From IMG/VR virus record IMGVR_UViG_3300040801_002923, positions 54,482 to 118,481 of that record: a stretch of 64,000 bases of DNA; one strand, given 5' to 3'. Position 1 is the stretch's first letter. Each line of letters opens with the position of its first letter. The notes under the pieces are model-generated. The model saw only the letters and a list, made by a program, of their open reading frames with translations. It did no database searches and was not told the origin of the DNA. Positions 3,866-51,795 of the stretch are shown one piece after another. Source of the DNA: a virus. A program made the position numbers and the translations under genes.

Positions 3866-4069
3866 ATGGCTGACCCTAGATATCGATGGCGCGTTGACAT
3901 CTTCGAATATGAGCGTGGGTGGGGCAGACGTCACGAAGGCGCGAAGTTTTTCGACGATGAAAACGAAGCGTACCAATTTGTCCGAGACTACAATTCTGAA
4001 AACACAGAAACGGTAGTCCCTGATTGGTATATGGCTGCTTCTGCCCCCCAAAAGGTGCAGGTGGCCTAG
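3866..4069 (+). CDS. Small hypothetical protein
   Basis: 67 residues from ATG 3866, chosen because AGGAGG lies 10 bases upstream; an in-frame start at 3812 has no such site. The sequence is rich in aromatic and charged residues (RYRWRVDIFEYERGWGRR) and reads like a small compact domain of the kind that adds a beta-hairpin and a helix (FFDDENEAYQFVRDY). No family is recognised. Its stop codon overlaps the GTG start of the SbtA-like gene by one base, so the two are probably translationally coupled. Confidence 0.7.
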   Translation: MADPRYRWRVDIFEYERGWGRRHEGAKFFDDENEAYQFVRDYNSENTETVVPDWYMAASAPQKVQVA

Positions 4070-26086: not shown

Positions 26087-26785
26087 ATGAGACGAGACGA
26101 AATACTCAACCGGCTTATTTGTAGGCACGTGGCAGGATCCCGTGCCTACGGGACCAGCGGTGAAATGTCTGACTGGGATTATCGTGGTATCTGGGCGTCA
26201 CCTAGAAAGGCGGTGCTCACACCGCTGTTTGGAAATCACCAAACATTCGAAGATGGTCAAGAAGAAGATACGGTGTATTACGAGTTGCGCCACTATGTCA
26301 AGCTCGCTGCAAACATGAACCCAAACGTTCTCGAAACGCTTTGGATTCCTCTTGAGAAGTTTGACATTGCGGAGACACCCTATATGTTTCTTCGCAACAT
26401 TCGCGACTCGTTCATGTCGAAGCAAATCGCAACAACTACCATTGGCTATGCAACAGCTGAGTTCAGTCGAGTTAAGAAGAAACTCGAACGCACCGGTGCA
26501 ATGAGTCATAAAAATGCAATGCATGTTGTACGACTAATGCGTATGGGAATGGAAGCGTTACAAACTGGACAGTACAACGTTGAACGGCCAGACGCCGATG
26601 AGTTGCTCCACATTAAAAATGGCGGGTGGACTCTCGATGAGTTAGAGGCGTATACTAACGATATGTATGCTAAAATGAAGAAGGTTGAACTCACAACTGA
26701 TCTTCCTGAATCACCAGACCGCGAAGAGATTGCTGAAACGGTTTGGGATATCTATAACCTGACGTGGAGTTTGCATGACGACTAA
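26087..26785 (+). CDS. RlaP-family nucleotidyltransferase
   Basis: 232 residues. DNA polymerase beta-type nucleotidyltransferase of the RlaP family (PF10127, named for its link to RNA repair). The signature is GSRAYG at 17-22 followed by SDWDYRG at 28-34, the usual GS ... D-x-D active site with the trailing RG of this family. YYELRHYVKLAANMNPNVLETLW (about 65-87) is the second diagnostic block. The C-terminal part is helical. It lies between uvsX and uvsY, driven by its own promoter, and overlaps the next gene by 11 bases. The substrate is unknown; with the HD-Pnk enzyme in the same genome a role in repairing damaged RNA is plausible. Confidence 0.8.
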   Translation: MRRDEILNRLICRHVAGSRAYGTSGEMSDWDYRGIWASPRKAVLTPLFGNHQTFEDGQEEDTVYYELRHYVKLAANMNPNVLETLWIPLEKFDIAETPYMFLRNIRDSFMSKQIATTTIGYATAEFSRVKKKLERTGAMSHKNAMHVVRLMRMGMEALQTGQYNVERPDADELLHIKNGGWTLDELEAYTNDMYAKMKKVELTTDLPESPDREEIAETVWDIYNLTWSLHDD

Positions 26786-27317: not shown

Positions 27318-27778
27318 GCGCACTAGATCGCATTGTAGGCAACATCCACCGTCTCCCCGCCGTACTCGAAGAGTATGAGCGGGGCCTTGACCAGGAGACA
27401 GTTGAAGCAAACCTTGCGATCAAAGGGAAGGTACTCGAAGTAGCCAATACCGAACAAGCGGGTTGGCTACTCTATTACTCCTCACGCAAGGCTGAGCTGT
27501 ACGCTCTTCTTAAATGGCTGGAGGGGCAACTGTCCGCCGTTCGAGGCAAGCACTTTCGCGCGTATACCGAACACTATCAGCGCGAGCTATCAGACCGACA
27601 AAAGGACAAGTACATCGACAATGAGCAAGATGTACAAGTGCAGCTGGAATTGTACCTCACAGTTAAAGAGATGCACGATCGCTATGAAGCTGTAGTTGAT
27701 GCGTTTCAAGCGAGAGGTTTCGCACTGCGAAACATCACCGAACTAAGAATAAGAAGTCTTGAAGACTCAGTAATTTAA
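27314..27778 (+). CDS. uvsY: UvsY recombination mediator
   Basis: 154 residues (T4 UvsY 137). TTG start overlapping the stop of the previous gene, with GGAG about 10 bases upstream. It loads UvsX onto gp32-coated ssDNA. The helical sequence carries the family region: GWLLYYSSRKAELYALLKWLE (about 50-71), a basic RELSDRQKDKYIDNEQDV stretch (about 92-108) and the closing AFQARGFALRNITELRI (about 130-146), comparable to the ssDNA-binding and hexamer-forming parts of UvsY. It lies immediately before uvsW. Confidence 0.82.
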   Translation: MSALDRIVGNIHRLPAVLEEYERGLDQETVEANLAIKGKVLEVANTEQAGWLLYYSSRKAELYALLKWLEGQLSAVRGKHFRAYTEHYQRELSDRQKDKYIDNEQDVQVQLELYLTVKEMHDRYEAVVDAFQARGFALRNITELRIRSLEDSVI

Positions 27779-30327
27779 TGGCCCATGTTAAGGTAAAGAT
27801 CCTAGACGAAGTTAACTGCGTAATCATCGGTCTCAAAGGCGACCACGCACTATATTTCTGGGAAGAATACGGCAAGCACCCACCCAACCACTTTTTCAAC
27901 CCGCGATTCAAAACGGGACAGTGGGACGGGAAGATCCGCTTTTTCACAAAGGCGGGGAAGACGTACGTCTTTCTGCTACCCGAGATTATTCCACGGCTGA
28001 CGGGACTGGGGTATAAAGTCCACATTGACGACCAACGTACAGCTGAAATTCCTGAAGTCCCGCTGATTGACAAGAACTACTTTAAGCACATCTTCCATCC
28101 AGACTTCGACGAATACGTCGAACTGCGCGATCATCAAGTAGAAGCGGTAAACACCATCACACAGGACCCGGGAATTATCATTGCGGGAACCGGTGCTGGT
28201 AAGGCACAACCACTGTACAGCAAGGTTCTCACTACCACAGGGTGGAAACGCATGGGTGATATCGATGTTGGCGAAACACTAGTTAATCCGGCTGGTGGTG
28301 TGACCTCTGTGATTGGAGTGTTCCCGCAGTCGCATCCCAAGCCTGTGTATGAATTGACGTTCCACGACGGTGCAAAAGCTAGAGCGTGTAATGAGCACTT
28401 GTGGGATGCATATGTGCCGAAGCAACAACACAAGGCTTGGACGGAACGTAAAACAATCACCACCCAACAGATTGTTGATTTCTATAGTAGAAAGTCTAGC
28501 GAACGCCGCACTCCGGGGAATATATCAATTCCACTAACCGAACCAGTTGAATATTGCGAACAGGTGTTGCCTCTTGACCCCTACGTACTGGGCCTGCTGA
28601 TTGGGGATGGACACTTGTGTCACACGCCAACTTTCACCACAGCAGACGAAGAACTGTTATCTGCTCTAGAAGAAGGACTTTCATGTTTTTCAAACATCGG
28701 TGTGAAATATACTGGACATGGATACGATTATCGTCTGTCAAAGCTAAATGAAACACACAATCGCTATGTTTCTAATGAACTATCAGATGTGTTAAAGGAT
28801 CTCGGTCTGTATGGTACTACTAGCCACACAAAGTTCATCCCTGCCACATACATGCAGGGCAGTATTGAACAGCGACTGGCTATGGTGCAGGGGTTGATGG
28901 ATACTGATGGTACCGCTGACCGCCGCGGAAATACATCGTTTAGCACCGCCAGTCCACAACTAGCCAGGGATATGCAGGAAGTTTGTTGGTCGTTGGGCAT
29001 GACGTGCACAATGACTGAAAAGATATCTAACATACAGACTGTGTCGTACACTCTACAAATACGATCTAAGACACCACGACAACTCTTCCGCCTTGCGCGA
29101 AAGCGAGATCGATGCCGGAATACCCACGCCAACGGTCGTATTGAGTTAACTCGCCGCGTGAAAGCTGTTGAATTTGTAGGATATGAAGATACGCAGTGTA
29201 TAGCTGTCGATAGTGATCAACATCTTTACATCACCGATGACTATGTTGTGACGCATAACACGTTGATGTGTGCCGCTTTGTGCGATCTGTACGGTAAGGC
29301 TGGCCTCCGCACACTAACGATAGTTCCTTCGAAAGACCTCATTGAGCAGACGCACAAGGAATACGTTATATGTGAGCTTGACGCCGGTCGGTACTATGGC
29401 GAAAAGAAAGAATTGGGACATCCGCATCTAGTATCGACGTGGCAATCACTCAAGAATAATCCAGGCTTGATGGAATACTTTGATATGATCATCGTAGATG
29501 AGTGTCATGGTGCCAAGGGCCAAATGCTGCAGAGTCTTCTGATTGAACATGGTGCTCACATTGCCTTACGGTTCGGTCTAACGGGTACACTACCCAAAGC
29601 GCAGACGGATGCAATGGCTGTACGGATCTGTATAGGTGATGTGAAATACACGATCACGGCCCGACAATTGATGGATCAAGGGCACCTGGCGCAACTCGAC
29701 ATCCAGATCATGCAGCTGGAAGAGGACTTCGACGAAGATTATGCTGAGTATAAAGCAGCTAATCCCCTCGCCGTTGAAACCTTAACGCAATACAAGGATG
29801 GATATTTTCCTGATTACCAGGCAGAAAAGCGGTTTCTTCAGCACAATAACGAACGGATCGCCTACATTGCTGATTACATCTCGTTGAAAAGAGACGACAA
29901 AAAAGGTAATGTCCTTTGTCTAGTTGATGGAGTTCGGTTTGGTCAAAAGCTAGCTGATGCAATACCAGAGTCTAAGTTCATTTATGGAAAGGACAAACAA
30001 AAGGCTAGACAAGAGATTTACGAGTTGTTCAGAGAGAACGATAACTTAGTTGTTATCGCGACAGTCGGAATTGCGTCAACGGGTTTGAGCATTAACCGCA
30101 TTTACAACATGATGTTCATCGACATTGGGAAATCATTCATCCGCGTTATTCAGACGATCGGGCGAGGATTACGAAAAGCGAAGGACAAGGACAGCGTACT
30201 GGTCACAGACATATGCTCTGACTTAAAGTACGGAAAGCGCCATCTAGCGGAGCGAACAAAGTTCTATAGAGAAGCGCAGTACCCATATAAGAAGATCAAG
30301 GTAAAATACAGCAATGCTGATACTTGA
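27778..30327 (+). CDS. uvsW: UvsW helicase interrupted by an intein
   Basis: 849 residues as encoded; 497 after removal of a 352-residue intein, close to the 503 of T4 UvsW. UvsW is a superfamily 2 RNA-DNA and branched-DNA helicase that unwinds R-loops and remodels forks. The N-terminal domain (1-110) has KTGQWDGKIRFF typical of UvsW. The split motif I reads GTGAGK (to residue 142), intein, then T at 495, so splicing restores GTGAGKT. Downstream are DECHGAKG (motif II, near 576), FGLTGTLP (motif III, near 598), ATVGIASTGLSI and a QTIGRGLRK motif VI near the end. The last 14 bases overlap the next gene. The host protein cannot work without splicing, as Lys and Thr/Ser of Walker A are separated. 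Confidence 0.95.
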   Translation: MAHVKVKILDEVNCVIIGLKGDHALYFWEEYGKHPPNHFFNPRFKTGQWDGKIRFFTKAGKTYVFLLPEIIPRLTGLGYKVHIDDQRTAEIPEVPLIDKNYFKHIFHPDFDEYVELRDHQVEAVNTITQDPGIIIAGTGAGKAQPLYSKVLTTTGWKRMGDIDVGETLVNPAGGVTSVIGVFPQSHPKPVYELTFHDGAKARACNEHLWDAYVPKQQHKAWTERKTITTQQIVDFYSRKSSERRTPGNISIPLTEPVEYCEQVLPLDPYVLGLLIGDGHLCHTPTFTTADEELLSALEEGLSCFSNIGVKYTGHGYDYRLSKLNETHNRYVSNELSDVLKDLGLYGTTSHTKFIPATYMQGSIEQRLAMVQGLMDTDGTADRRGNTSFSTASPQLARDMQEVCWSLGMTCTMTEKISNIQTVSYTLQIRSKTPRQLFRLARKRDRCRNTHANGRIELTRRVKAVEFVGYEDTQCIAVDSDQHLYITDDYVVTHNTLMCAALCDLYGKAGLRTLTIVPSKDLIEQTHKEYVICELDAGRYYGEKKELGHPHLVSTWQSLKNNPGLMEYFDMIIVDECHGAKGQMLQSLLIEHGAHIALRFGLTGTLPKAQTDAMAVRICIGDVKYTITARQLMDQGHLAQLDIQIMQLEEDFDEDYAEYKAANPLAVETLTQYKDGYFPDYQAEKRFLQHNNERIAYIADYISLKRDDKKGNVLCLVDGVRFGQKLADAIPESKFIYGKDKQKARQEIYELFRENDNLVVIATVGIASTGLSINRIYNMMFIDIGKSFIRVIQTIGRGLRKAKDKDSVLVTDICSDLKYGKRHLAERTKFYREAQYPYKKIKVKYSNADT
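28204..29259 (+). mobile_element. Class 3-type intein with LAGLIDADG endonuclease in uvsW
   Basis: 352 residues from Ala (codon 28204) to His-Asn (ending 29259), followed by Thr as +1 residue. There is no Cys, Ser or Thr at position 1. The features of class 3 inteins are present: Trp67 in EHLW (block B), Cys332 in TQCIAVD (block F) and Thr350 in VVTHN (block G). Two LAGLIDADG motifs, LGLLIGDG and QGLMDTDG, mark a homing endonuclease in the middle. Insertion is at the Walker A Lys/Thr junction, a favoured highly conserved site. The frame is open throughout. Confidence 0.92.
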
Positions 30328-31566: not shown

Positions 31567-31997
31567 TGGCCAGTAAAGTAGAGAAGCTAAAAGCTCTGCT
31601 TGAGGCACTAGATCTCATGCAGGAAGAAGAGGAGTGGACGCCCACACCCAAGCAGTGGAAGCGCATTCGCTCGCTAATTGAGGACCTCGATGAAGAAGCA
31701 CCAGCACCAGCAGCTGAAGCACCAGTACGTTTCGTAGGTGCAGATCGAGCAGGATCTGGGGCACGGCCAGCTGGTCGATCGAATCCCTGGGCCGATGGTA
31801 CCGCTCGTATGCCAGAAGTACCATCCGCGATTCCCGAAGGAGCAGAGCGCTTGGCACCAACGGGCACATCTGCACTAGCCCCCCAGGGGTCTGCGCTAAG
31901 ACCACAGGGAGGTGTTGCCAACCCAAATCAACCTATCGGAATGTTAGAGGATGGCACACCTGTACACGATTCCCATCCAGGAAGCCCTGGACTGTAA
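31566..31997 (+). CDS. Hypothetical protein with Pro/Ala-rich tail
   Basis: 143 residues from ATG 31566 (TAATG overlap). Residues 1-45 form a helical start with KVEKLKALLEALDLMQEEEEW, a possible short coiled coil. The rest is disordered, rich in Ala, Pro, Gly and Thr. Nothing suggests an enzyme. The last 47 bases overlap the DnaE-like gene in another frame. Confidence 0.6.
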   Translation: MASKVEKLKALLEALDLMQEEEEWTPTPKQWKRIRSLIEDLDEEAPAPAAEAPVRFVGADRAGSGARPAGRSNPWADGTARMPEVPSAIPEGAERLAPTGTSALAPQGSALRPQGGVANPNQPIGMLEDGTPVHDSHPGSPGL

Positions 31998-32529
31998 CCT
32001 ATTCACGGAGCTAAAGGACCGTGTCCTGTTTTTCGACGGCGATATGGTTGTTCCCTCATCAGAAGTAACAAAGTTTCTCAAATTAGCCAGCACTGGCAAA
32101 CTCTGCGTTACCGAAACGACGCCAGATATAGAGATGTTTAATTCAGTGTCTGACGTGCCGATCAGGCAGAAAGAAGATGTCACAATACCTGATCTCGCGT
32201 GGAATCTTCCTGACCCCTGGAACAGCCTGGATGTCGAAGCGTACATATATGAGCGCTTCGAAGAAGAGCTGCAGAATGATTCAACTGTGGCTGTAAATGC
32301 TAAAGTGTATCTGAAGAGAGTTGAAGAAGAGATTGAGGCCTATCGGGACCTTAAACTCTACGCGCTGCTCCGGGCAGTCATATATACGGTAAGTACACTT
32401 CGTAGCTATAATGTCGTGTGGGGAGTTGGTAGAGGAAGTAGCGTATCTAGCTACGTATTGTATTTAGTCGGAGTACATGACGTAGATAGCGTTTTCTTCG
32501 AACTAGACTACACCGACTTCCTACGCTAA
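31951..32529 (+). CDS. DnaE-like fragment: N-terminal half of a family C polymerase palm
   Basis: 192 residues. From about 90 to the end it follows the bacterial replicative polymerase DnaE: YIYERFEEEL, YLKRVEEEIEAYRDLKLYALLRAVIYTV (the helix before the palm) and WGVGRGSSVSSYVLYLVGVHDVDS (the GRGS palm loop that binds nucleotide). The chain ends at DYTDFLR, the place where DnaE has the LFERFL segment just before its catalytic D-x-D. The missing continuation is encoded at 45163-45738. The first 85 residues are not recognised. ATG 31951 has AGAGG touching it, so the true start could be slightly downstream. Function is unknown; see the paired gene. Confidence 0.7.
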   Translation: MAHLYTIPIQEALDCNLFTELKDRVLFFDGDMVVPSSEVTKFLKLASTGKLCVTETTPDIEMFNSVSDVPIRQKEDVTIPDLAWNLPDPWNSLDVEAYIYERFEEELQNDSTVAVNAKVYLKRVEEEIEAYRDLKLYALLRAVIYTVSTLRSYNVVWGVGRGSSVSSYVLYLVGVHDVDSVFFELDYTDFLR

Positions 32530-34646: not shown

Positions 34647-35570
34647 ATGCCGGGTGCTCACGCTCTGTGGGTCGAGAAGTATAGACCCACCACGCTAGAC
34701 GGATACATCTTCCACGACGAGTCGCACAAGCGTGCTTTTGTGCGAATGGTTGCAGATCGCAGTATTCCACATCTCCTACTCACAGGAATTCAAGGTGCTG
34801 GTAAAACAACGATTGCACGCATACTGATCAACGAACTCGAAGTAGACGAACTTGATGTTCTATACATCAACGCCTCCGAAGAGAACTCAGTCGACACCAT
34901 TCGCGACAAGATCAAAAGCTTCGTCTCCACCTTTGCTCTCGGTGATTTCAAAGTCATTCTACTTGACGAGGCCGACTTCATTACACTGAACGGTCAAGCG
35001 ATTCTCCGCAACCTAATGGAAGCGTACAACGAGACTACCCGCTTCATTCTTACGTGCAACTACGAGCACAAGATCATGCCGCAGATTGTATCGCGGTGTC
35101 AGCATTTTCGCTTCAAAGCAGGTAACCGCGACGATATCACTGAGTACGTAGCTCAAATCCTCATACAAGAAGGGGTAAAGTTCGATCTGGATACACTGGA
35201 CCGTTACATCAGCCTTGCATATCCGGACGTCCGTAAGATCGTCAACTCACTTCAGCAGAATGTATACGAGGGCGCTCTTCATGACCCGATTGGTATGGCT
35301 GATTCTGGCGACTACAAGCTAGAGTTGCTGGGGAAGATTGAGGCAGGCGATTGGCACGGCGCGCGCGAAATTTGTTGCGGGGCCGTGGTAGCTGAGGAAT
35401 GGGAAGACGTATATAGGTTCATTTACGAAAATGCACACAAGGCGTTTAAGGATCAGGCTAAGTGGGAAGCTGCAATCGTCGTTGTAGCAGAGCACTTGTA
35501 CAAACATGGTATATGCGCCGATCCAGAGATCAACGCGGCGGCGATGTTTATTTCGCTGTCGACAATTTAG
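34647..35570 (+). CDS. 44: Clamp loader large subunit gp44
   Basis: 307 residues (T4 gp44 319). AAA+ ATPase that opens and loads the sliding clamp. It starts with WVEKYRP-type residues (8-14), Walker A GIQGAGKT at 47-54, Walker B VILLDEAD near 103-110 (with LLDEAD at 105-110), sensor 1 ILTCNYE near 134-140 and the arginine-finger motif SRC at 149-151. The C-terminal region (about 170-300) is helical. It has a strong early promoter of its own. Gene 62 lies 1.6 kb downstream, further apart than in T4 where it is adjacent. Confidence 0.96.
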   Translation: MPGAHALWVEKYRPTTLDGYIFHDESHKRAFVRMVADRSIPHLLLTGIQGAGKTTIARILINELEVDELDVLYINASEENSVDTIRDKIKSFVSTFALGDFKVILLDEADFITLNGQAILRNLMEAYNETTRFILTCNYEHKIMPQIVSRCQHFRFKAGNRDDITEYVAQILIQEGVKFDLDTLDRYISLAYPDVRKIVNSLQQNVYEGALHDPIGMADSGDYKLELLGKIEAGDWHGAREICCGAVVAEEWEDVYRFIYENAHKAFKDQAKWEAAIVVVAEHLYKHGICADPEINAAAMFISLSTI

Positions 35571-38317: not shown

Positions 38318-39622
38318 ATGTCAGATACATACTACCTCTATTACGCCGACGGCGCGTTTGCGGGAGCTGTCGAGCCGGGCACCACAGTTACTCTCAATGA
38401 TTTGAAGCTAGATGGGTTTCAGAAACCCATCTATGGCGAACGACGTAACAACAACCTGATTAAACTCCTCACACACTTTGCTAGTGAGGAAGATCCGTCC
38501 AATCCCGGAAACCCACCTCCAGAAGTGATCGCAGCTCCTCGTCCAGGCCAGCTGTGGTTCAACCGAACGCCAAACCCACCTTCTTACCCCAATGGACAGC
38601 TGTTACTGTTCGATGGTAGCGTTAACCAGTGGGTAGAAATTGGGACCGACATTTATTCGATCGATGCTGTTGGCACATCTGGTACTGTGACAATCAACAA
38701 GATTGCGGCTTCAGAACCACCTACAGAGATTACAAATATTGCGCCAAGAGACCTATTCGAAGCGCATGTAGTTGAAACCACAGATGTGCACACGTCTGGT
38801 CAAATTGAAGTAAATCCTGCAATCAACGGTCAAGAGGATGTGCAAAACGCTATTGCTGCTCTTGCTATCCCCACCCAACTTCACATCGACATGCTGACCG
38901 GTGCTCACGCTAGTGAGCACATCTCTATTGCTGGAATTCCAGGTCTAATTGCAACTGATACCAGAGCAGCGATTGACGAGCTTCAATCAGACATCAACAC
39001 CCTGAGCTCGACGGTTGGTGGGTCGGGCGCTTCGCTGATTGCCCACATCAACAGCGGCACCGACGCGCACGACGCAGAGGCAATATCCTTTGATAACGCA
39101 GTTACAGGATTTTCTGCAACAAACGTAGAAGCCGCGCTCGTCGAACTCAACAACAACGCCAACGTATCTTCGGCGAGTAACGTACTCGATAGTTTGCGTG
39201 TATTTCGGTCAACCAACCAGACGCTAAACAGTACCGCCGGAAACAAGGTGCTGTTCAACCAGCAAACGGTTGGGATTGGAACACTGGGTGCACAATATAA
39301 CACCATTACCGGCCGGTATACAGCAGCATATGATCAGATCATCAGGGTCCGCGTGACGCTGAGATTCCAAGGCATTCAAAATGAAAACTACTCTTTCGGA
39401 GAGATTCGCAGAAATGGGTCTGTGCAACGACGCGCTCAGATGTACGAGTGGTCAGAAAATACACCCCTAGCTGGCACAGTCGCATTCTCATGCTTGGTTG
39501 AACTGTCAGCTGGTCAATATATCGAAGTGTTTGCGGGGCGAAATAATCCAGGATCGCATAACTTAATCGGTGGTTCGTCTTCCACATACATGGAAATTGA
39601 TATTCTGAGGGATCTATCATGA
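38318..39622 (+). CDS. Tail-fibre protein, paralogue 1
   Basis: 434 residues. The N-terminal 130 residues (YYLYYADGAFAGAVEPG ... YGERRNNNLIKLLTHFASEE ... GQLWFNRTP) are a module shared with the next two proteins. About 240-290 holds HINSGTDAHDAEAISFDN ... TNVEAALVELN, a coiled or beta-helical shaft element. The C-terminal 130 residues look like a jelly-roll tip (RYTAAYDQIIRVRVTLRFQG; ELSAGQYIEVFAG). Its last 4 bases overlap the next start. Confidence 0.8.
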   Translation: MSDTYYLYYADGAFAGAVEPGTTVTLNDLKLDGFQKPIYGERRNNNLIKLLTHFASEEDPSNPGNPPPEVIAAPRPGQLWFNRTPNPPSYPNGQLLLFDGSVNQWVEIGTDIYSIDAVGTSGTVTINKIAASEPPTEITNIAPRDLFEAHVVETTDVHTSGQIEVNPAINGQEDVQNAIAALAIPTQLHIDMLTGAHASEHISIAGIPGLIATDTRAAIDELQSDINTLSSTVGGSGASLIAHINSGTDAHDAEAISFDNAVTGFSATNVEAALVELNNNANVSSASNVLDSLRVFRSTNQTLNSTAGNKVLFNQQTVGIGTLGAQYNTITGRYTAAYDQIIRVRVTLRFQGIQNENYSFGEIRRNGSVQRRAQMYEWSENTPLAGTVAFSCLVELSAGQYIEVFAGRNNPGSHNLIGGSSSTYMEIDILRDLS

Positions 39623-40974
39623 GCGACAGATATCTACTAACGTTCGCTGATGGCCAGTTTATCGGTTTTGTTGAACCAAACGATAGGCTCAACGTTGGTG
39701 GGTTGGTTATTACAGGTCGTGGTGACAGTCCGTATGGCGATCACCGTAACGAAAACCTACTACACCTACTTGAGAACTTTGCTAGTGACGAAGTTGCTCC
39801 GGATACCCCCGACTCAACTATTATCGGCATCCCTGTCGTAGGTCAAACGTGGTTCAACAAAGCAACCAACAGCCTGCTGGTATTTAACGGCGTAGAATGG
39901 ACTAACGTATCAATCGATCGACACGTTACTACTTCTGACGATACGCGCTTGGTGTCGGACGGTATCATTGAACTGGAACGCAATCTGCCGGTAACAGGTC
40001 TACCGGATCTGGTGATCGAGAACATTTTGCATAACACAGAGCCAGGATTACCGATACCGCTGGGTCCTGGTGGCTTCCAGCAACATCTGGTCCAAAATCC
40101 TGCACACGCAGGGACATCAGTTTCATTCATCCCTATATCAGTCAATCCTCCGGCTGTCCTTATATCAGCAACCAACGCACAAGATGCGCTGGTACAAACC
40201 TACACGCTCATTAATGACCACATCAACAATACAGTTGCCGCACACGACGCCTCCGCAATAGGATATATCGGTGCTGTACCAGAACCCAATGTCCAGCTGG
40301 CTCTAGAAAATCTCGATACACAGCTAGACACTATCAGCGGCGACATTGGTGGGGGTAGTGGTGATCTTCAAGATCACATCGATGATCTGTCAGATGCGCA
40401 CGATGCGTCGGCTATTTCTCTCCCTGTGGGACTGGGCATTGCAGGTAACCCAACGAATGTCCAAGATGCTATCGAGATCATCAATACTATCGTTGGCGTA
40501 GGCACTTCAGGACTACTTGAAGTTACTCGAGCAACTGCGGCTGGGGGACAGGTAATTGGTGCATCTACCAAACTTAACTTCACCAACGTAGTACTTGGTA
40601 ACGCCTCCAATCAATTTTCAACCGCAACTAGCACATATACAGCAGCGTTTGATCAAGAAGTAAACATTACAGCGGCCTTATTGTACAACATTCCAAACAA
40701 CACTCTATCGTCAACATTATCTATTCGCGTTAACGGTGTTCAACGGGCCTCGTGGACTACGGCTAACAGTTCTAACACTGTTAGCCCGTCGTTGATCGAT
40801 GCTGACTTTGGCTTTGAGCTTCACCTTAAAACGATATTGTCTGCAGGTGATACAGTTGAGATCTTCGCGTCTGCTGATAACCCTTCAGTTGTCCAAGTAA
40901 CAGATAGAGCAGGTGCGCTCCTTGCAGGAGCCGGTACATCGGTTGAGTTCGATATTGTAAGAGATCTATCATAA
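39619..40974 (+). CDS. Tail-fibre protein, paralogue 2
   Basis: 451 residues. The N-terminal module (YLLTFADGQFIGFVEPN ... YGDHRNENLLHLLENFASDE ... GQTWFNKAT) is like that of the previous gene. HIDDLSDAHDASAISLPVG ... TNVQDAIEIIN (about 253-293) is the shaft element, and the C-terminal tip again has FSTATSTYTAAFDQEVNITAALL and ILSAGDTVEIFAS. Its stop overlaps the next start by one base (TAATG). Confidence 0.8.
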   Translation: MSDRYLLTFADGQFIGFVEPNDRLNVGGLVITGRGDSPYGDHRNENLLHLLENFASDEVAPDTPDSTIIGIPVVGQTWFNKATNSLLVFNGVEWTNVSIDRHVTTSDDTRLVSDGIIELERNLPVTGLPDLVIENILHNTEPGLPIPLGPGGFQQHLVQNPAHAGTSVSFIPISVNPPAVLISATNAQDALVQTYTLINDHINNTVAAHDASAIGYIGAVPEPNVQLALENLDTQLDTISGDIGGGSGDLQDHIDDLSDAHDASAISLPVGLGIAGNPTNVQDAIEIINTIVGVGTSGLLEVTRATAAGGQVIGASTKLNFTNVVLGNASNQFSTATSTYTAAFDQEVNITAALLYNIPNNTLSSTLSIRVNGVQRASWTTANSSNTVSPSLIDADFGFELHLKTILSAGDTVEIFASADNPSVVQVTDRAGALLAGAGTSVEFDIVRDLS

Positions 40975-42269
40975 TGGCTAATACGTACACAATTACATCT
41001 AGCGACGGTACGTTTGATTTTCTCGTCGATGAATCAACCGAGGTACAGCAGTACGGACTCACATTCACGGGGAGAGGCGTCACTAATTATGGTGCGAGCA
41101 GAAACCAAAACCTCCTACTACTGTTGGATAATTTTGCAAGTGCAAACACAAGTGAACCAGTGCCGTTGCTTGGTAGATTGTGGTATGACACCACCGATGA
41201 CACATTAAAATTATGCGACGATGGAGCTAATTTCAACACGTTCGGAGATGACATCTATCTGTTGGGCGTCACGCGAGGTATCTCTGGCAATACAGTCTTG
41301 CTTCCCCGAGCTAATGCTTCTGATATAAATCTGTCGCCGACGGCAAACATCGCGCAGCAGAATGAACTATTGGACCACTTTAACGGAACGGAGTCGCACA
41401 GGGCGGATGCGATTTCATTACCAGCAGGCCTTGGTATTCCAACGAACCCAACGAACGTGCAAGCCGCGCTGGCACAAATCGATCTGGTGCTTGATAATCA
41501 CTTAGCGCTAGTCAACAGTCGCCACACCGCGTCGGCAATTCGTGTTAACCCAGCGGTACTGAGTGAGAACAACGTACAAGACGCTCTCGAAGCGTTGAAT
41601 TCGCGGCGTCAAACGCTACAAGCCTCCGCCGGTGGGGGGTCGAGTGCGGTCACCGCTCACATCAACGACCCAACAGATGCGCACGATGCAACAGCCATAT
41701 CTTTCGACAATACTGGCGTTGTTCCACCAATGGCCAGTACAGATGTGCAAGACGCCATCGAGGAAATCAATACCAATATTGGAGCTCTACCAACAGCTGT
41801 TGGCTACGTAGACGTTGCACGGGCTTATGCGGTATCGAGCACCTCAATTACCCCAACCCCATCCACGTGGACGCCACTCAACACGAGTACGGTACTCTTT
41901 GGAGACGACTTCAACAACTTCAGTGGGGGTGTATACACCGCCGATCGCAACATGCTGGTTCGGATTCGGGGGTATGCCACATTTGAATTTGGAGCAACTA
42001 ACCCGTTTGCTTCACAGGAAGCGGGATTACGGATCACCGTGAACGGTAACATGGTTCGCCGTGGCAGCGAGCCCAGAAAGGGAAGTACGTCTGTGCTTCC
42101 TGTTCGCATATACGTCGAATGCTCCGTTGTTGCTGAGCTTGCAGCGTCCGATCAAGTGAGACTTGAAGCCACAACTCTAAAAACATCTGGTGTGGAACCG
42201 GAAGGATCTACTGTACTTGGTGGCTTCTCCAACAACTCACTTGAGATCGAAGTTCTAGCAGAGCTTTAA
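40974..42269 (+). CDS. Tail-fibre protein, paralogue 3
   Basis: 431 residues. Head module: YTITSSDGTFDFLVDES ... YGASRNQNLLLLLDNFASAN ... GRLWYDTTD. The shaft has HINDPTDAHDATAISFDNTG ... TDVQDAIEEINTN. The tip (FSGGVYTADRNMLVRIRGYATFEFG; ELAASDQVRLEATT) resembles those of the two preceding paralogues but is diverged. Three such genes in tandem suggest duplication followed by tip diversification. Confidence 0.8.
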   Translation: MANTYTITSSDGTFDFLVDESTEVQQYGLTFTGRGVTNYGASRNQNLLLLLDNFASANTSEPVPLLGRLWYDTTDDTLKLCDDGANFNTFGDDIYLLGVTRGISGNTVLLPRANASDINLSPTANIAQQNELLDHFNGTESHRADAISLPAGLGIPTNPTNVQAALAQIDLVLDNHLALVNSRHTASAIRVNPAVLSENNVQDALEALNSRRQTLQASAGGGSSAVTAHINDPTDAHDATAISFDNTGVVPPMASTDVQDAIEEINTNIGALPTAVGYVDVARAYAVSSTSITPTPSTWTPLNTSTVLFGDDFNNFSGGVYTADRNMLVRIRGYATFEFGATNPFASQEAGLRITVNGNMVRRGSEPRKGSTSVLPVRIYVECSVVAELAASDQVRLEATTLKTSGVEPEGSTVLGGFSNNSLEIEVLAEL

Positions 42270-42290
42270 GGACCCCTAGAGCACCACGAG

Positions 42291-42296
42291 TAAATA
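42291..42296 (+). promoter_or_regulatory. Late promoter motif TAAATA
   Basis: Located 30 bases before ATG 42327, with TGAGGAAAA as ribosome site between. Confidence 0.62.
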
Positions 42297-42326
42297 CGCC
42301 GCACGTATTGAGGAAAAATGCGCTAA

Positions 42327-44600
42327 ATGGCAAATCCAGAAGACTACATCATCAGATTTACGGATCCTGTTCGTAGTGACGGTCAAGTTGTAAGCTCTAC
42401 CGAAGCACCTACGTTTATCATTCGTCCGTTTACAGTAGATGGTCCACAACACCCAACGCTTAATCAGGTGTTTTCGGATCCCGAGACAGGCACCGGTGTT
42501 AGTAAGCGATCTCCTGTTGTACTGTACGGTAAAGGTATCCCTCAGTACGGCGAACAGATGGCAAACAACTGGTTGCAATCTGTTGAAAACTTTGCTGGAT
42601 CTACTCCTCCTTTGGGATCTGCAGCTATCCCCGGCGTGGCGTGGTTCCAAGACGAGCGGTATTGGTTCAATACCGCTCTAGGCACGTTGTTTGTGTGGTC
42701 TGATGCCACTGACGAATGGCTGCCTCAAGCGGTTACCGTTCAAGGACCTGTACCAACCGCAGCAGGAACTGTTGGCGACTATATCTACGCAACAGACACG
42801 GGGGAACTTTTCCTCTACTACGAGTGGACAGATTACACCCCTGCGTTCGGTGGGTGGATTCAGCGTCTCGTTCGACAAGAGATCGTTGATGCGCCTAACC
42901 CTGTAGTAAATCCAGCGGATTTGCCGCGACGTACGCTAAGTGTATACGATCCGACTGTTGGTACCGAAGGGTTCAACAAACTGCTATCGTATCGTGGTAA
43001 CGACGCGGGCGATCCGGTTCTTGGAGATCTGCACGTCGGCGGCGAGGGGTTCTTCGCTGGAACGGTTACCGCAGCTGCGCCAACACTCGATACGCACTTA
43101 GCCACAAAGCAATATGTTGATGGTGAAATTAGCATTGCGATTGGCGGCAACAATCAACTTCACGAGCTGCTCGATGTTGATACAGGAATCAACGCATTAT
43201 CTACGCCACCGGCCGATGGTGATGCCTTTTTCTTCGACACCAGTCTTGGAGGTACATTCGGAGGTGAGGCGTATCCCGGTAGGTGGACGGCCCGCGGAAT
43301 CGTATCTGCAGACATTGGCGATCTAACAGCGACAATCAATGCGGGTATCGGTGGAGCCTCTCTGACCGACTTGGCAAACGTAGACGTCCCCGCACCGAGC
43401 AATGACCAGATTCTCAGCTTCAATAACGTTTCAGGCAGCTGGGAAGCGCGCAACGAGCGTTTTGTACTGGGTACAGCCGAAGCAACGTCATATACAGTTA
43501 CGAGTAACGAAATCACGCTAAATCGAAACGACGGTAGCACAGTTGTTATCGGTGATGTTTCAGCAGCTAGCGATCTTAGCGCCCACATTGGTGCAACTAT
43601 CGCCCACGATGATACTCAGATTGATTGGACAGGTGGTGCTCTGCCTAATGCAGCCAGCACACCTAACAACATTCAGGAAGCGGTTATAGCAGTTGACGCA
43701 GCTCTTGCTTCTGCTGGCGCTATTGGATACACCTCTCTGGGCGGTGGTGGAACAAATGGTAGCGGCTCAGCCGATTCATCCACGGGACTCGGTTCCATTC
43801 AATTTGTTTCTAACACAGCAGCTATTGGCATTACTGTAGCCAACGGTTCGCCAGTCGACACAGTAACATTCACTTTCAGTGATGCAGGAATCAACCATGA
43901 CGCCCTTTTGAACTTTGTCGCAAACGAACATATTGATCACGCATCGGTTAATATCAACTCCGGTGCAGGTCTAACGGGTGGTGGCAACATCACAACGTCC
44001 CGAACGCTGTCCCTCGACACGAGTAACTCTAGAAACGTTGACCACAACGCAGTCAGCATTAATGCCGGTACGGGGTTGACTGGTGGTGGCACAATTGCTT
44101 CGTCCCGAACAATCAACCTGACCAACACCGGTGTAGCAGCAGGGTCATATACAAACCCCAACATTACCGTCGACGCACAGGGGCGAATTACGTCTGCAGC
44201 AAATGGATCGGGTGGATCTGGTGTTACGGAATCAGGCACTTCAGCTGCGTTCACACCAAACGGTGGCACAAATATTGGGATTGTGAATCCTTTGAGTGGA
44301 CCACCCGATATGTTCCAATGCGTACTGGTTTGCCAGAGTCCTGACCAAGGATATGCAGCTGGGGACATCATTGTGTTGAATCCCCAAGGTGTAGATTTCG
44401 ATGAAGCGGGCGGCCAATCGACATATGGTGGTAAAGTTGCTTATGACTCCAGCTCGGACCAATTCCGTGTAAGCTTCTACTCGCACACAGTTGCTCCTGG
44501 TCTTGCTATTCTTGTGCAACCATTTGCGACAGCAACTTCTGCAATGGCCACAATCGTATCAGCAAACTGGCAAGGCTTCATTAAGGCGATAAGGTTTTAA
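42327..44600 (+). CDS. Large tail-fibre protein with a related head module
   Basis: 757 residues. The head (about 60-105: VLYGKGIPQYGEQMANNWLQSVENFAGSTPP ... GVAWFQDE) is a diverged form of the module in the three preceding genes. HLATKQYVDGEI (about 253-264) is a common fibre linker. The shaft region near 410-450 has an HIGATIAHDDTQIDW element, and 550-620 has two copies of AGLTGGGNITTSRTLSL / TGLTGGGTIASSRTINL, a repeat frequent in phage fibres. The C-terminus (QCVLVCQSPDQGYAAGDIIVL) is unlike those of the three paralogues, so it probably carries another binding tip. Confidence 0.82.
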   Translation: MANPEDYIIRFTDPVRSDGQVVSSTEAPTFIIRPFTVDGPQHPTLNQVFSDPETGTGVSKRSPVVLYGKGIPQYGEQMANNWLQSVENFAGSTPPLGSAAIPGVAWFQDERYWFNTALGTLFVWSDATDEWLPQAVTVQGPVPTAAGTVGDYIYATDTGELFLYYEWTDYTPAFGGWIQRLVRQEIVDAPNPVVNPADLPRRTLSVYDPTVGTEGFNKLLSYRGNDAGDPVLGDLHVGGEGFFAGTVTAAAPTLDTHLATKQYVDGEISIAIGGNNQLHELLDVDTGINALSTPPADGDAFFFDTSLGGTFGGEAYPGRWTARGIVSADIGDLTATINAGIGGASLTDLANVDVPAPSNDQILSFNNVSGSWEARNERFVLGTAEATSYTVTSNEITLNRNDGSTVVIGDVSAASDLSAHIGATIAHDDTQIDWTGGALPNAASTPNNIQEAVIAVDAALASAGAIGYTSLGGGGTNGSGSADSSTGLGSIQFVSNTAAIGITVANGSPVDTVTFTFSDAGINHDALLNFVANEHIDHASVNINSGAGLTGGGNITTSRTLSLDTSNSRNVDHNAVSINAGTGLTGGGTIASSRTINLTNTGVAAGSYTNPNITVDAQGRITSAANGSGGSGVTESGTSAAFTPNGGTNIGIVNPLSGPPDMFQCVLVCQSPDQGYAAGDIIVLNPQGVDFDEAGGQSTYGGKVAYDSSSDQFRVSFYSHTVAPGLAILVQPFATATSAMATIVSANWQGFIKAIRF

Positions 44601-45162: not shown

Positions 45163-45738
45163 ATGGATATTGACATTGACTTTCCTTCCGACTTTGACCC
45201 ACTTACCATCTTCGATGCTACCAGAGCGTCGATGGTTAAGAACGGCAACTTGGTCAAGCATCCGGTTGGTATCTATTTTCAGAATATTCCAACCGACTCG
45301 CTAACGGGATTAGCCGCGATTCCGCATAAAGAAGCTCAGGATCTTGGATATCTGAAGATTGACTTTCTGCACTTGACTATCCTGGACAACTTCAACAACA
45401 AAGAAGAAATTCGGCAGTTGATGAAGATTCCTCCCGATTGGTCTTTACTGCAAGATCCAGAGGTAGTGCCCAAGTTGTTTCAGCTTGGTAGACAAGGTCA
45501 GCTCCTGGCTAAAACCAAACCCCAATCGATTCAGGAGCTAGCTGAAACGATCGCTCTAATCCGCCCCGGAAAACGTGAACTCGTGCCAGCCTATCTCAAA
45601 GACCCGGACGCTGTGCGCCCGTACCTGTACACTAAACCTGAGAACGGAAAGCAGTATTACAAGAAGTCGCATGCAATTGCTTATGCATTGACGATTGTTC
45701 TTCAGTTACACCTCATCAAAGGTGGGATCATCCCATAA
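45163..45738 (+). CDS. DnaE-like fragment: catalytic half of a family C polymerase palm
   Basis: 191 residues. It opens with MDIDIDFPSDFD, the catalytic D-x-D motif of bacterial DnaE (PDIDIDF), at the exact point where the protein at 31951-32529 ends. HPVGIYFQNIPTDSLTG (about 37-53) parallels the HAAGVVIS-PL segment, LGYLKIDFLHLTILD (about 64-78) contains the third catalytic Asp, SIQELAETIALIRPG (about 126-140) parallels the DLVALVALYRPG helix, and KKSHAIAYALTIVLQLHLIKGG (about 165-186) parallels KSHAAAYALISYQTAYLK. The helix-turn finger regions and the tail are absent, so it is a severely reduced enzyme or a regulatory relic. No intein sequence is present at the break. It has its own promoter. 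Confidence 0.75.
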   Translation: MDIDIDFPSDFDPLTIFDATRASMVKNGNLVKHPVGIYFQNIPTDSLTGLAAIPHKEAQDLGYLKIDFLHLTILDNFNNKEEIRQLMKIPPDWSLLQDPEVVPKLFQLGRQGQLLAKTKPQSIQELAETIALIRPGKRELVPAYLKDPDAVRPYLYTKPENGKQYYKKSHAIAYALTIVLQLHLIKGGIIP

Positions 45739-45746: not shown

Positions 45747-46097
45747 ATGAGAATCTTCGAAGACCGCACAGCAGCCATACTATCGCCCACACTTCATCAG
45801 AAGATAGTGTTGGCTAAAATTCACGTTTCTGCAAACCCCGAGGTCGCGGGACGCGCAATTTCTGCTGACGGCAAATTAGTCGCCGCGCGTGACATTCTAG
45901 CTCGGTTAGGGATGATTGAGTATTCCGACAAAGGCGCTCGATTGACTGCTCAGGGTGAGGAGCTTATGGCAAACGTAAGTCCGCCTCTTATTGACGAAAC
46001 AGGTTCTTTGACTCCCGAAGGCGAAAAGCTAGCTAAAGATGGGACGCAACAAACGGAAAGTATTTTCCGATCTATAGCTCGACAGTTGCGTTCTTAA
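45747..46097 (+). CDS. Small hypothetical protein, possible winged helix
   Basis: 116 residues. The middle part (VAGRAISADGKLVAARDILARLGMIEYSDKGARLTAQGEELM) has the helix-turn-helix then beta-wing order of winged-helix DNA-binding domains, with the recurring T-x-x-G-E-E element twice (LTAQGEEL; LTPEGEKL). No enzyme motif. Late-type leaderless start. It overlaps the end of the convergent minus-strand gene by 26 bases. Confidence 0.6.
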   Translation: MRIFEDRTAAILSPTLHQKIVLAKIHVSANPEVAGRAISADGKLVAARDILARLGMIEYSDKGARLTAQGEELMANVSPPLIDETGSLTPEGEKLAKDGTQQTESIFRSIARQLRS

Positions 46098-46530
46098 TGA
46101 TTTGAACCCCCGCGGGTACAGGTTTGCGGCGACGACGCTTAACGCTGCGGACCTTCTCCATGTCAAACATCGGTAACGGTCCTATTACGCGCGTGACGAA
46201 CTCTGTGTTCATCGTGCGATAGACGGGCGCTAGCTGTCCACCCAGCCCAGCTCTTGCAAACGCCATTGACACGGGGATCGTGCCGTAATCAGGCTCTTTG
46301 AACCACTCATGAGCGGCAGTAATTAGAAGTTCTTCGCTAACCCCCGTTGGACTGCACAGGTCAAGTACGTACGCCCTAATTTGCTTGTCGTCAGCATTGT
46401 CAATTACGGTTAGAGAGTGCTCTTTTCGATACTGAACAAGTGTGATGAATGGATAGCCTGAATAGGTGTCCGGATGCGGTTCGACGATCAGTGGATATGG
46501 ATTGCCGCGCTTCGATCTCTTTCTAGTCAT
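46072..46530 (-). CDS. Hypothetical basic protein
   Basis: 152 residues on the minus strand, with ACAGAGAGA before ATG 46530. Both ends are basic (TRKRSKRGNPYPL; RSVKRRRRKPVPAG), the middle holds YPFITLVQYRKEHSLTV and VSEELLITAAHEWFKEPDYGTIPVSMAFARAGL. The charged ends suggest nucleic-acid or capsid contact. Family not recognised. Confidence 0.6.
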   Translation of the reverse strand: MTRKRSKRGNPYPLIVEPHPDTYSGYPFITLVQYRKEHSLTVIDNADDKQIRAYVLDLCSPTGVSEELLITAAHEWFKEPDYGTIPVSMAFARAGLGGQLAPVYRTMNTEFVTRVIGPLPMFDMEKVRSVKRRRRKPVPAGVQIIKNATVEL

Positions 46531-47549: not shown

Positions 47550-47840
47550 ATGAGCAAGATTAGCCCCGTATTCACTGAACCGAAGAAACCTGCATCAGTA
47601 GAAATTGCTGAAGATGCAGAACTCACGCCGATTACCAAAAAGAAGATCCCCAAAGTCGATGCATCGCGTTGGGATGACATGACTCCCAGTGAGCTGTATG
47701 ACCAACTGTTTATTCTTGAACAGCGCATAATGTATTGCAAGCAATATGGTCATATGGATGCTGCGAAGCAAATTGAACGTGGTGTTGTAGCTCTTCGGCA
47801 ACTAATCGAACAACGAGACAAAGGACTAAACCTACTATGA
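47550..47840 (+). CDS. Small helical hypothetical protein
   Basis: 96 residues, GGAGGA upstream of ATG 47550. The first 45 residues are disordered (EPKKPASVEIAEDAELTPITKKK), the rest forms a helical hairpin (TPSELYDQLFILEQRIMYCKQYGHMDAAKQIERGVVALRQLIEQRD). It ends in GLNLL. Overlaps the glutaredoxin start by 4 bases. Function unknown. Confidence 0.6.
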   Translation: MSKISPVFTEPKKPASVEIAEDAELTPITKKKIPKVDASRWDDMTPSELYDQLFILEQRIMYCKQYGHMDAAKQIERGVVALRQLIEQRDKGLNLL

Positions 47841-48094
47841 GCGTTACAGTATACACCAAAGGTGGATGTACATATTGCGTCCGCGCCAAGCGACTCCTAA
47901 CACAGCGCGGTGTTACATTCCGTGAAGTCAATCTAGATCACGTCGATCGCCGAGACATCGATGCGTTGATTGAAAGCACAAACTGCCGTACAGTTCCCCA
48001 GATATTCATCAACGGGAACTTCATTGGTGGATTTGATGCCCTCGAGGCACTCGACATGAAAGGCGAGCTTGAAGACTTCAAGCCTATCGACTGA
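47837..48094 (+). CDS. nrdC: Glutaredoxin
   Basis: 85 residues. A thiol-disulfide carrier of the glutaredoxin fold; in T4-like phages such proteins often reduce ribonucleotide reductase. The active site is C-T-Y-C at 11-14. TVPQIFINGNFIGGFDAL (about 52-69) is the cis-Pro and GG-hand that binds glutathione. No ribonucleotide reductase is in the window. Coupled to the upstream gene by an ATGA overlap. Confidence 0.92.
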   Translation: MSVTVYTKGGCTYCVRAKRLLTQRGVTFREVNLDHVDRRDIDALIESTNCRTVPQIFINGNFIGGFDALEALDMKGELEDFKPID

Positions 48095-49421: not shown

Positions 49422-49609
49422 CCACATCCGAGTCCACGATCGCTACGCTCCGTCGCGATCATATCAAACATATTCAACAACGCGTTGAAGGTTTGACGAC
49501 AGCGCAGCTTGAAGCTGTTCGGCTGGTCGTGGACAACGCCAGTGATTTTGAGCGATTTATTTGGTTGCTCGGACAATTTGCCAAGAATAAAAGCAGGGAG
49601 AAACTATGA
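49418..49609 (+). CDS. Small helical hypothetical protein
   Basis: 63 residues from GTG 49418, overlapping the previous stop (GTGA). Nearly all helix (RRDHIKHIQQRVEGLTTAQLEAVRLVVDNASDFERFIWLLGQF). Overlaps the FolE2 start by 4 bases. No function is known. Confidence 0.55.
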   Translation: MTTSESTIATLRRDHIKHIQQRVEGLTTAQLEAVRLVVDNASDFERFIWLLGQFAKNKSREKL

Positions 49610-50697
49610 AAGACAATTGCTGCCAACAAGGCTGCTGCGATCAAACACACGCGCACGAGCACCAAGCACCATCGGGCACGTACAACCATAACGATTACAG
49701 CGAGAAGATGCCCGATCTGTTGTTCCGCTACGATCAAGAATACTATCCGATGGATGAAGAGCTACCTGATCCGCAGGTAGATCCTATCTTGCCTGGAGCA
49801 CGTGTGCCGATTCAAAAGGTTGGTATTGCTCCCGTCGATTTCCCTATCCAGGTTCGCCGCCGCGATGGTGGTATCCAGACACTGCAAGCACAAGCATCGC
49901 TCTATTGTTCCCTAGATGATCCGGACGCAAAAGGCTTGAACCTTAGCCGTCTGTACTTGTTGATGCACGAGAAGATCAAAGATCACCTCACGATTGATGG
50001 TATCCGGAGTGTGCTTGAGGCAATGGCCACAAAGCAGGGATCTGACAACGCATACTGCAAACTGCGTTTCCGATACCCCTGGACACAAAAAGCGCTGCGC
50101 ACCCGCCAGCCGCTGAACGCGTGGGAAGAGGAAAATGGAGAGTACGAAACACTGGCCAATGGCGAGAAAGTATCGTTGCGCAAGATGGTTGGTCACATTG
50201 CATACGACGTCGTAATTGAAGGTCGCTTCCATCGCCATGCACCTGACGGCCGTCAGTTCCGGTTCTTCCTAACGACCGACTACACGTACAGCTCTACGTG
50301 TCCGTGCTCGTTTGAACTGGCACACACAGCCACTGAGAAGCGAGAAGCTGCAGCAAACGCTCACTCACAGCGTTCAATCATGAAAACGACAGTTGAGTTC
50401 GATCCTTCAAACTTCATCTGGATCGAGGATATGATTGAGCTGCATCGTCAGCACATTCCAACAGAAGTACAGATCGTTGTTAAGCGTCGCGACGAACAGG
50501 CGTTTGCGGAACTTAATGGGTCTAATCTGTTGTTCAGTGAGGACGCGGTCCGCATCATGTACAACGCTCTCGATCAATGGTACGACGAAGGTAAGGTGTT
50601 TGACTTCACAATCTCGACGTCACACGAAGAGAGTCTTCACCCATGGGATGCTATTGCGGTAGTGTGGAAGCACAGCGATGTTGCACCCAAAGGCTGA
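49606..50697 (+). CDS. folE2: GTP cyclohydrolase IB (FolE2)
   Basis: 363 residues, GGGAGAAA upstream. FolE2 converts GTP to 7,8-dihydroneopterin triphosphate, the first step of folate and of 7-deazaguanine synthesis. Evidence: VGIAPVDFPIQV (about 72-83), the catalytic Cys region YSSTCPCSFELA (C232/C234), NAHSQRS near 256-262 and EDMIELH near 279. FolE2 is usually 260-300 residues. The extra 60-70 N-terminal residues are rich in Cys and His (NCCQQGCC, THAHEH) and might bind metal. In phages this gene type usually serves 7-deazaguanine DNA modification, which fits the QueD-like and DpdA-like genes 2.3-4.6 kb downstream. Confidence 0.9.
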   Translation: MKDNCCQQGCCDQTHAHEHQAPSGTYNHNDYSEKMPDLLFRYDQEYYPMDEELPDPQVDPILPGARVPIQKVGIAPVDFPIQVRRRDGGIQTLQAQASLYCSLDDPDAKGLNLSRLYLLMHEKIKDHLTIDGIRSVLEAMATKQGSDNAYCKLRFRYPWTQKALRTRQPLNAWEEENGEYETLANGEKVSLRKMVGHIAYDVVIEGRFHRHAPDGRQFRFFLTTDYTYSSTCPCSFELAHTATEKREAAANAHSQRSIMKTTVEFDPSNFIWIEDMIELHRQHIPTEVQIVVKRRDEQAFAELNGSNLLFSEDAVRIMYNALDQWYDEGKVFDFTISTSHEESLHPWDAIAVVWKHSDVAPKG

Positions 50698-51510: not shown

Positions 51511-51795
51511 ATGGCATTTCGAGCACTCCACGCTGTCGTCGCTGTAAAGGTAGACGAATCGCAAGAATTCAAACGAGGTATCGCAATCCCTGTGTTTGCA
51601 CGTGAAGAATTGGACACGGGAACTGTAGTGTCTGCTGGTCCCGGTGAGTATGATAAGAATGGACGCTTCAAGCCGAACCCAGTCTCAACTGGAGATCGCG
51701 TTTTGATTGCTAAAGGTGCTGGATTTAAGGTTGAGGTTGAAGGCGAAACCCTTCTAATGCTAACCCCCTCAGAAATTACAGGCATCCTTCCGTGA
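51511..51795 (+). CDS. groES: GroES-type co-chaperonin (Cpn10)
   Basis: 94 residues, close to the 97 of bacterial GroES. It would cap a host GroEL. FRALHAVVAVKVDE parallels the RPLHDRVLVKR start of GroES. The mobile loop is short, EFKRGIAIPVFAREE (about 20-34), with an IAI tripeptide in place of IVL. TGTVVSAGPGEYDKNGRF (about 36-53) is the roof hairpin, and GDRVLIAKGAGFKVEVEGE follows. The window has two Cpn10 proteins; this one is the more standard. It overlaps the superoxide dismutase gene by 4 bases (GTGA). Confidence 0.9.
   Translation: MAFRALHAVVAVKVDESQEFKRGIAIPVFAREELDTGTVVSAGPGEYDKNGRFKPNPVSTGDRVLIAKGAGFKVEVEGETLLMLTPSEITGILP

What the first reader, a model, noticed from the sequence alone, without database searches (positions are those of the whole stretch)
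31951..32529. Phage gene encodes the first half of a DnaE polymerase palm and stops at the catalytic site
The C-terminal 100 residues follow bacterial DnaE helix by helix (YLKRVEEEIEAYRDLKLYALL, then GRGSSVSSYVLYLVG) and end where DnaE has LFERFL, just before the D-x-D. A T4-like phage should use its own family B polymerase, so a fragment of a family C enzyme is unexpected. It could be a minimal nucleotide-binding module, a decoy for the host replisome, or a relic.
Basis: partly seen in the sequence, partly recalled or inferred. Interest (0 to 1): 0.8.

Follow-up and report, generated by a model that had tools for sequence, protein, structure and literature searches.

The report
Two-piece mini DNA polymerase in phages
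The gene encodes one half of a stripped-down bacterial-type DNA polymerase whose other half, with the catalytic residues, lies 13 kb away; split enzymes of this kind were described in large T4-related phages in 2021, so this is a new member of a known kind whose activity has, as far as I found, not been tested.

Summary
ORF A (31951-32529) matches family C polymerases (Pfam DNA_pol3_alpha, E=7e-9) and ends at E. coli DnaE residue 393, seven residues before the catalytic D-x-D. ORF B (45163-45738) starts on the catalytic motif (MDIDIDF = DnaE 400-406) and carries the third aspartate (D67 = D555), K553, R639 and H760. Together they hold a nearly complete Pol III palm plus a rudimentary finger region; PHP, thumb, most of the fingers and everything C-terminal are missing. 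Catalytic residues are conserved throughout both families, both genes evolve under purifying selection (median dN/dS 0.17 and 0.09), both AlphaFold2 models (pLDDT 91) match Pol III alpha best in the PDB, and the halves co-occur almost always and were never found fused. This argues against a relic or decoy and for an enzyme assembled from two chains. It is not new as a kind: Iyer et al. 2021 (PMC7824862) described this minimal, split Pol III alpha in group 2.2 jumbo phages. Small additions: both halves occur in a 141-kb non-jumbo phage; at least 597 IMG/VR stretches encode half A; the split point is mapped to the residue. Polymerase activity and the A-B complex remain untested.

The parts
31951..32529 (+). 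ORF A, 192 aa: N-terminal half of the split minimal Pol III alpha. Residues 1-77 have no DnaE counterpart; residues 78-192 correspond to E. coli DnaE 270-393.
   Evidence: Pfam PF07733 7e-9, phrog_11127 1e-31, hhalign, AF2 pLDDT 91.0, Foldseek top 11 all Pol III alpha
32428..32442 (+). GRGSS motif (A160-164 = DnaE G361-R362-G363-S364-G365), the nucleotide-binding signature of the palm
   Evidence: G158, G160, R161, G162, S163 and S167 invariant in 67 sequences
45163..45738 (+). ORF B, 191 aa: C-terminal half. B1-7 = DnaE 400-406, B31-137 = 509-642, B164-178 = 754-768. The thumb and most of the fingers are missing.
   Evidence: phrog_11778 2e-65, PF17657 2.9e-6, hhalign, AF2 pLDDT 91.3, Foldseek top 15 all family C polymerases
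45166..45180 (+). DIDID = catalytic D401/D403 (and D405)
   Evidence: D2, D4 and D6 invariant in 33 sequences; the two apparent exceptions come from start-codon choice (both frames read DIDID upstream)
45355..45363 (+). K65-I-D67 = K553/D555, third catalytic carboxylate
   Evidence: invariant in 33 sequences and 46 of 46
45562..45564 (+). R134 = DnaE R639, finger-region arginine
   Evidence: invariant; mapping
45670..45672 (+). H170 = DnaE H760 in the (N/K)KSHAxxYA motif
   Evidence: invariant; mapping
34647..35570 (+). Clamp loader large subunit (T4 gp44-like), downstream of A here and in XacN1, CBB and Atu_ph07
   Evidence: Pfam AAA 2e-13 and DNA_pol3_delta2 1e-10
46072..46530 (-). Conserved convergent gene of unknown function (phrog_11637) just downstream of B; context marker only
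   Evidence: within 600 bp of B on the opposite strand in 19 of 23 B-gene pairings tested

Best explanation
A and B are the two chains of a minimal family C (DnaE/Pol III alpha type) nucleotidyltransferase. A supplies the helical half of the palm with the GRGSS nucleotide-binding motif. B supplies the central sheet with all three catalytic aspartates and a small finger remnant that holds the incoming nucleotide and template. The two fold together into one active palm, break point between DnaE 393 and 400, and carry out metal-dependent nucleotide transfer to a primer end. They probably act as an accessory DNA polymerase (short gap filling, repair or lagging-strand tasks) beside the phage's family B replicase. 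Shown here: homology, split point, conservation, purifying selection, co-occurrence, fold of each chain. Inferred: the heterodimer, catalysis, and the role in replication or repair.
For: Profile matches of both halves to Pol III alpha and fold matches of both models to Pol III alpha ahead of everything else in the PDB. The residue mapping is complementary with only about seven residues missing at the junction. Active-site residues are invariant in both families: A E127, GxGRGS, S167; B D2/D4/D6, K65/D67, R134, H170. Median dN/dS is 0.167 for A (55 pairs) and 0.091 for B (76 pairs). A is present in all 9 named phages with B examined and in 8 of 9 IMG/VR records of 130 kb or more that have B; B is present in all 6 A-bearing records of 160 kb or more newly searched. 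No fusion in 104 A and 66 B frames. A and B distances correlate (r=0.89 over 17 genomes). A is linked to the clamp-loader gene and B lies in the uvsW to primase/helicase cluster of RaK2-like phages. Iyer et al. 2021 reached the same reading independently.
Against: No complex could be predicted here and no activity is known. Thumb, PHP and most of the fingers, which grip primer-template in Pol III, are absent, so ordinary DNA synthesis is not assured. One 415-kb record (G006) has B without a detectable A. B's sequence match to DnaE is piecewise (PDB profile E only 0.005), and its Foldseek TM-score is about 0.43. The distance correlation is expected of any two genes inherited together.
Confidence: 0.75

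Rival explanations
1. A two-chain nucleotidyltransferase of Pol III descent that no longer copies DNA. With thumb and most fingers lost, it modifies another substrate (for example a terminal transferase, or an RNA- or protein-modifying enzyme).
For: Retained residues are those of nucleotide binding and metal catalysis, while the primer-template grip is gone. The palm fold is the Pol beta superfamily fold, which includes many non-polymerase transferases (established knowledge).
Against: The finger residues R639 and H760 are invariant, and the genes lie in replication/recombination gene clusters.
Confidence: 0.15
2. Relic or degraded fragments of a captured host dnaE.
For: Both proteins are truncated relative to DnaE.
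Against: Low dN/dS, invariant catalytic residues in both chains, wide distribution at low identity, clean complementary breakpoints.
Confidence: 0.03
3. Decoy or inhibitor of the host replisome: A (or B) mimics host DnaE to titrate clamp, tau or epsilon.
For: A resembles a fragment of the host enzyme.
Against: The clamp-, tau- and epsilon-binding parts of DnaE (PHP and C-terminal regions) are exactly the missing ones; a decoy would not need an invariant catalytic triad in a second gene.
Confidence: 0.04

Closest known systems
Minimal split DNA polymerase III alpha of group 2.2 jumbo phages (Iyer et al. 2021, PMC7824862); phrog_11127 + phrog_11778
   Same: Two separately encoded chains, N-terminal nucleotide-binding and C-terminal Mg/template-binding; no other Pol III domains; phage of the RaK2/XacN1/Atu_ph07 assemblage.
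   Different: Nothing essential. In this phage A and B are 13 kb apart on one strand with tail-fibre-like genes between them; sequences are only 20-43% (A) and 34-61% (B) identical to the relatives aligned.
Truncated Pol III alpha CBB_328 (172 aa) of phage CBB (PMC5259590) and gp316 of Atu_ph07 (PMC6102473)
   Same: Orthologues of A, near the clamp loader gene in both phages.
   Different: Those papers did not describe the second half as its partner in the passages read.
Bacterial DnaE / Pol III alpha (E. coli dnaE)
   Same: Palm nucleotidyltransferase: GRGS, D401, D403, K553, D555, R639 and H760 are kept.
   Different: One chain of 1160 aa with PHP, palm, thumb, fingers and C-terminal domains; here 383 aa in two chains without PHP, thumb, most fingers or C-terminal domains.
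Phage full-length DnaE-like polymerases (phrog_405; group 3.2 jumbo phages)
   Same: Family C.
   Different: Single chain; according to Iyer et al. with a PHP domain and host-derived.

Membership tests
Minimal split Pol III alpha (Iyer et al. 2021) | N-terminal NTP-binding half encoded as a separate gene | tested here: met
   ORF A = phrog_11127, E 1.1e-31; maps to DnaE 270-393 with GRGSS
Minimal split Pol III alpha (Iyer et al. 2021) | C-terminal Mg2+/template-binding half encoded by a distant gene | tested here: met
   ORF B = phrog_11778, E 2e-65, 12.6 kb downstream; DIDID and D67
Minimal split Pol III alpha (Iyer et al. 2021) | No PHP or other Pol III domains in the genome | tested here: met
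   PF02811 and PF14579: 0 of 9 records including this one, controls ring; this record is partial
Minimal split Pol III alpha (Iyer et al. 2021) | Co-resident family B replicase | tested here: inconclusive
   Not in this 118-kb partial record; present in 17 of 18 relatives of 130 kb or more
Minimal split Pol III alpha (Iyer et al. 2021) | Reconstitutes an active enzyme (predicted by the authors) | not testable with these tools
   No complex prediction available; no biochemistry found in the library
Family C DNA polymerase (DnaE/PolC) | Significant profile similarity | tested here: met
   PF07733 7e-9 for A, PF17657 2.9e-6 for B, both above curated cut-offs
Family C DNA polymerase (DnaE/PolC) | Three catalytic aspartates and GRGS motif | tested here: met
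Family C DNA polymerase (DnaE/PolC) | PHP-palm-thumb-fingers in one polypeptide (PMC3666897) | tested here: not met
   Split in two chains; DnaE 1-269, 407-508 and most of 643-753 have no counterpart. So it is a derivative of the family, not a canonical member.
Family C DNA polymerase (DnaE/PolC) | Template-directed DNA synthesis | not testable with these tools
   needs biochemistry

The most novel reading that the evidence does not exclude
The A:B pair is an active two-subunit enzyme of about 45 kDa that works without thumb and PHP: either the smallest known family C polymerase, or a Pol III-derived nucleotidyltransferase with a different substrate, conserved in T4-related phages beyond the jumbo size class.
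Probability: 0.4. Interest if true: 0.65.

Novelty: new member of a known kind. Interest (0 to 1): 0.35.

Why it matters
Cellular family C replicases are large multidomain enzymes. A 383-residue version split through the palm, kept under selection in many phages beside a family B replicase, would define the minimal catalytic core of the bacterial replicase and could show how Pol III alpha arose or can be reduced. Iyer et al. read it as a model of an ancestral polymerase. That is testable, but the idea itself has been in print since 2021.

Tried and rejected
Single-sequence phmmer of A against the PDB gave only E of about 0.15; the family profile was needed. Pattern search with A alone found one locus; with the alignment it found at least 597. 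I considered a split intein: the end of A and the start of B show no intein-like extension, and both stop at the DnaE breakpoints. I considered further fragments in other genes: no PHP or HHH_6 domain in 9 records, no fused A-B frame. A paired-alignment coevolution analysis was not done because only about 17-30 genome pairs are at hand. Relic and decoy readings were rejected on dN/dS, invariant catalysis and missing replisome-binding domains.

Full report
Check of the observation. The ORF at 31951-32529 is present as described. By itself it matches the Pfam family DNA_pol3_alpha above the curated cut-off (E 7.3e-9, residues 103-191), phrog_11127 'DNA polymerase' (1.1e-31) and the NCBI DnaE superfamily model (1.6e-7). 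A profile of 18 phage relatives finds Pol III alpha chains, and nothing else of significance, in the PDB (2.5e-6 to 6.4e-5). hhalign of a 67-sequence alignment places residues 78-192 on E. coli DnaE 270-393. The protein therefore ends seven residues before P400-D401-x-D403. The first 77 residues have no counterpart in DnaE.

The partner. ORF B, 45163-45738, starts MDIDIDF, which corresponds to DnaE PDFDVDF (400-406). Its family is phrog_11778 (2e-65) and it passes the Pfam cut-off for the Pol III finger domain (2.9e-6). hhalign maps B31-137 to DnaE 509-642 and B164-178 to 754-768; the N-terminal MDIDIDF match is by motif (also weakly). Hence the thumb (between 407 and 508) is replaced by about 24 residues, most of 643-753 by about 26, and everything after about 770 is gone. 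A plus B equals one Pol III palm with a rudimentary finger region, 383 residues in all. No PHP or HHH_6 domain was found in this record or in eight relatives, although the same searches ring in control genomes.

Conservation. In A, E127, G158, G160, R161, G162, S163 and S167 are invariant in 67 sequences; they correspond to DnaE E328, G359, G361, R362, G363, S364 and S368. In B, D2, D4, D6, H33, K65, D67, R134 and H170 are invariant in 33 sequences, corresponding to D401, D403, D405, H511, K553, D555, R639 and H760. The complete catalytic triad and the nucleotide-binding motif are thus retained, split over two chains. Nei-Gojobori dN/dS on close pairs has a median of 0.167 for A (range 0.046-0.351, 55 pairs) and 0.091 for B (0.014-0.174, 76 pairs); many of these pairs are not independent and some have dS near or above 1. 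Both genes are under purifying selection.

Fold. AlphaFold2 with family alignments gives pLDDT 91.0/pTM 0.72 for A and 91.3/0.73 for B. Foldseek against the PDB returns Pol III alpha for A's first 11 hits (probability 0.93-1.00, rmsd 1.5-6.9 A; E-values modest, 0.02-0.5). B's first 15 hits are all family C polymerases (best E 1e-4). B carries the strands of the DnaE-like core and A mostly helices there, so each chain alone would hold half of one globular palm. That suggests an obligate pair (inference). The complex itself could not be predicted with the tools given.

Distribution. tblastn finds B in 106 phage records, of which 89 cover at least 80% of it. They include RaK2, 121Q, PBECO4, GAP32, CBB, Atu_ph07, XacN1, SCTP-2 and PA5oct; the weak tail probably includes ordinary Pol III polymerases. 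A is present in all nine named phages with B examined and in eight of nine IMG/VR records of 130 kb or more with B; the exception is a 415-kb record. Conversely all six A-bearing records of 160 kb or more have B; smaller records, which may be fragments, often lack it. In the loci held, A frames are 166-230 residues and intact B frames 185-253 (stop to stop), never fused. A and B protein distances correlate (r 0.89, 17 genomes), which is expected under vertical co-inheritance and is not proof of contact. Of the 18 records of 130 kb or more, 17 also carry a family B polymerase.

Neighbourhood. A is followed by a small protein, a gp31/GroES-like protein and the clamp loader gp44 in this window, CBB and Atu_ph07; in XacN1 the clamp loader follows at the corresponding place. 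B lies between uvsW and primase/gp41 helicase in RaK2-like phages and is followed here and in relatives by a convergent gene of unknown function. In this window much of the span between gp44 and B is filled by four tail-fibre-like genes (38318-44600; description from the sequence only). The setting is DNA replication and recombination.

Comparison with what is known. Iyer et al. 2021 (Viruses 13:63, PMC7824862; [quoted passage not shown] They suggest it reconstitutes a complete enzyme and may serve synthesis of one strand or repair. Earlier genome papers had noted a truncated Pol III alpha only (PMC5259590; PMC6102473). The window's pair meets every testable feature of that description except the family B gene, which the partial record cannot settle. 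It is therefore a new member of a published kind. I found no biochemical follow-up in the held library; the library lacks most subscription papers and preprints.

What is added. The split point is mapped to the residue. Selection is measured. The pair also occurs in a 141-kb circular genome (Alishewanella phage Slicko01), below the jumbo size limit. The gene linkage to gp44 is conserved. What remains open is activity and role. With thumb and PHP gone the enzyme may be distributive, suited to gap filling, or may have left DNA synthesis altogether.

Noticed in passing
window 4024-5007 (+): Complete SbtA-type sodium-dependent bicarbonate transporter gene (Pfam Sbt_1, E 7e-105) between terminase and a polynucleotide-kinase-like gene; tblastn finds no relative in 50,697 phage records. 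Possible new auxiliary metabolic gene, or an assembly chimera to be excluded.
   Followed up: partly
window 27778-30327 (+): UvsW helicase carries an intein with a LAGLIDADG endonuclease, inserted in the Walker A motif (GTGAGK / AQPLYSK...VVTHN / TLM); the first intein residue appears to be Ala rather than Cys or Ser.
   Followed up: no
window 51792-52388; 49606-50697; 26087-26785; 47837-48094: Phage-encoded Fe/Mn superoxide dismutase, FolE2 GTP cyclohydrolase, RlaP-type Pol-beta-family RNA repair protein, glutaredoxin.
   Followed up: no
Slicko01 OQ508956 3529-5033; Atu_ph07 NC_042013 212336-213688: The family B polymerase is itself divided over two open frames in these phages (578+322 aa and 578+418 aa frames), which also carry the split Pol III alpha.
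   Followed up: no
IMG/VR record of L024 (415 kb): Has B and family B polymerase but no detectable A: a very divergent A, a partner replacement, or an incomplete record.
   Followed up: partly
window 31951-32180: The first 77 residues of A form a small conserved domain (strands and two short helices, D29-G30 conserved) without a match in DnaE or in the families searched.
   Followed up: partly
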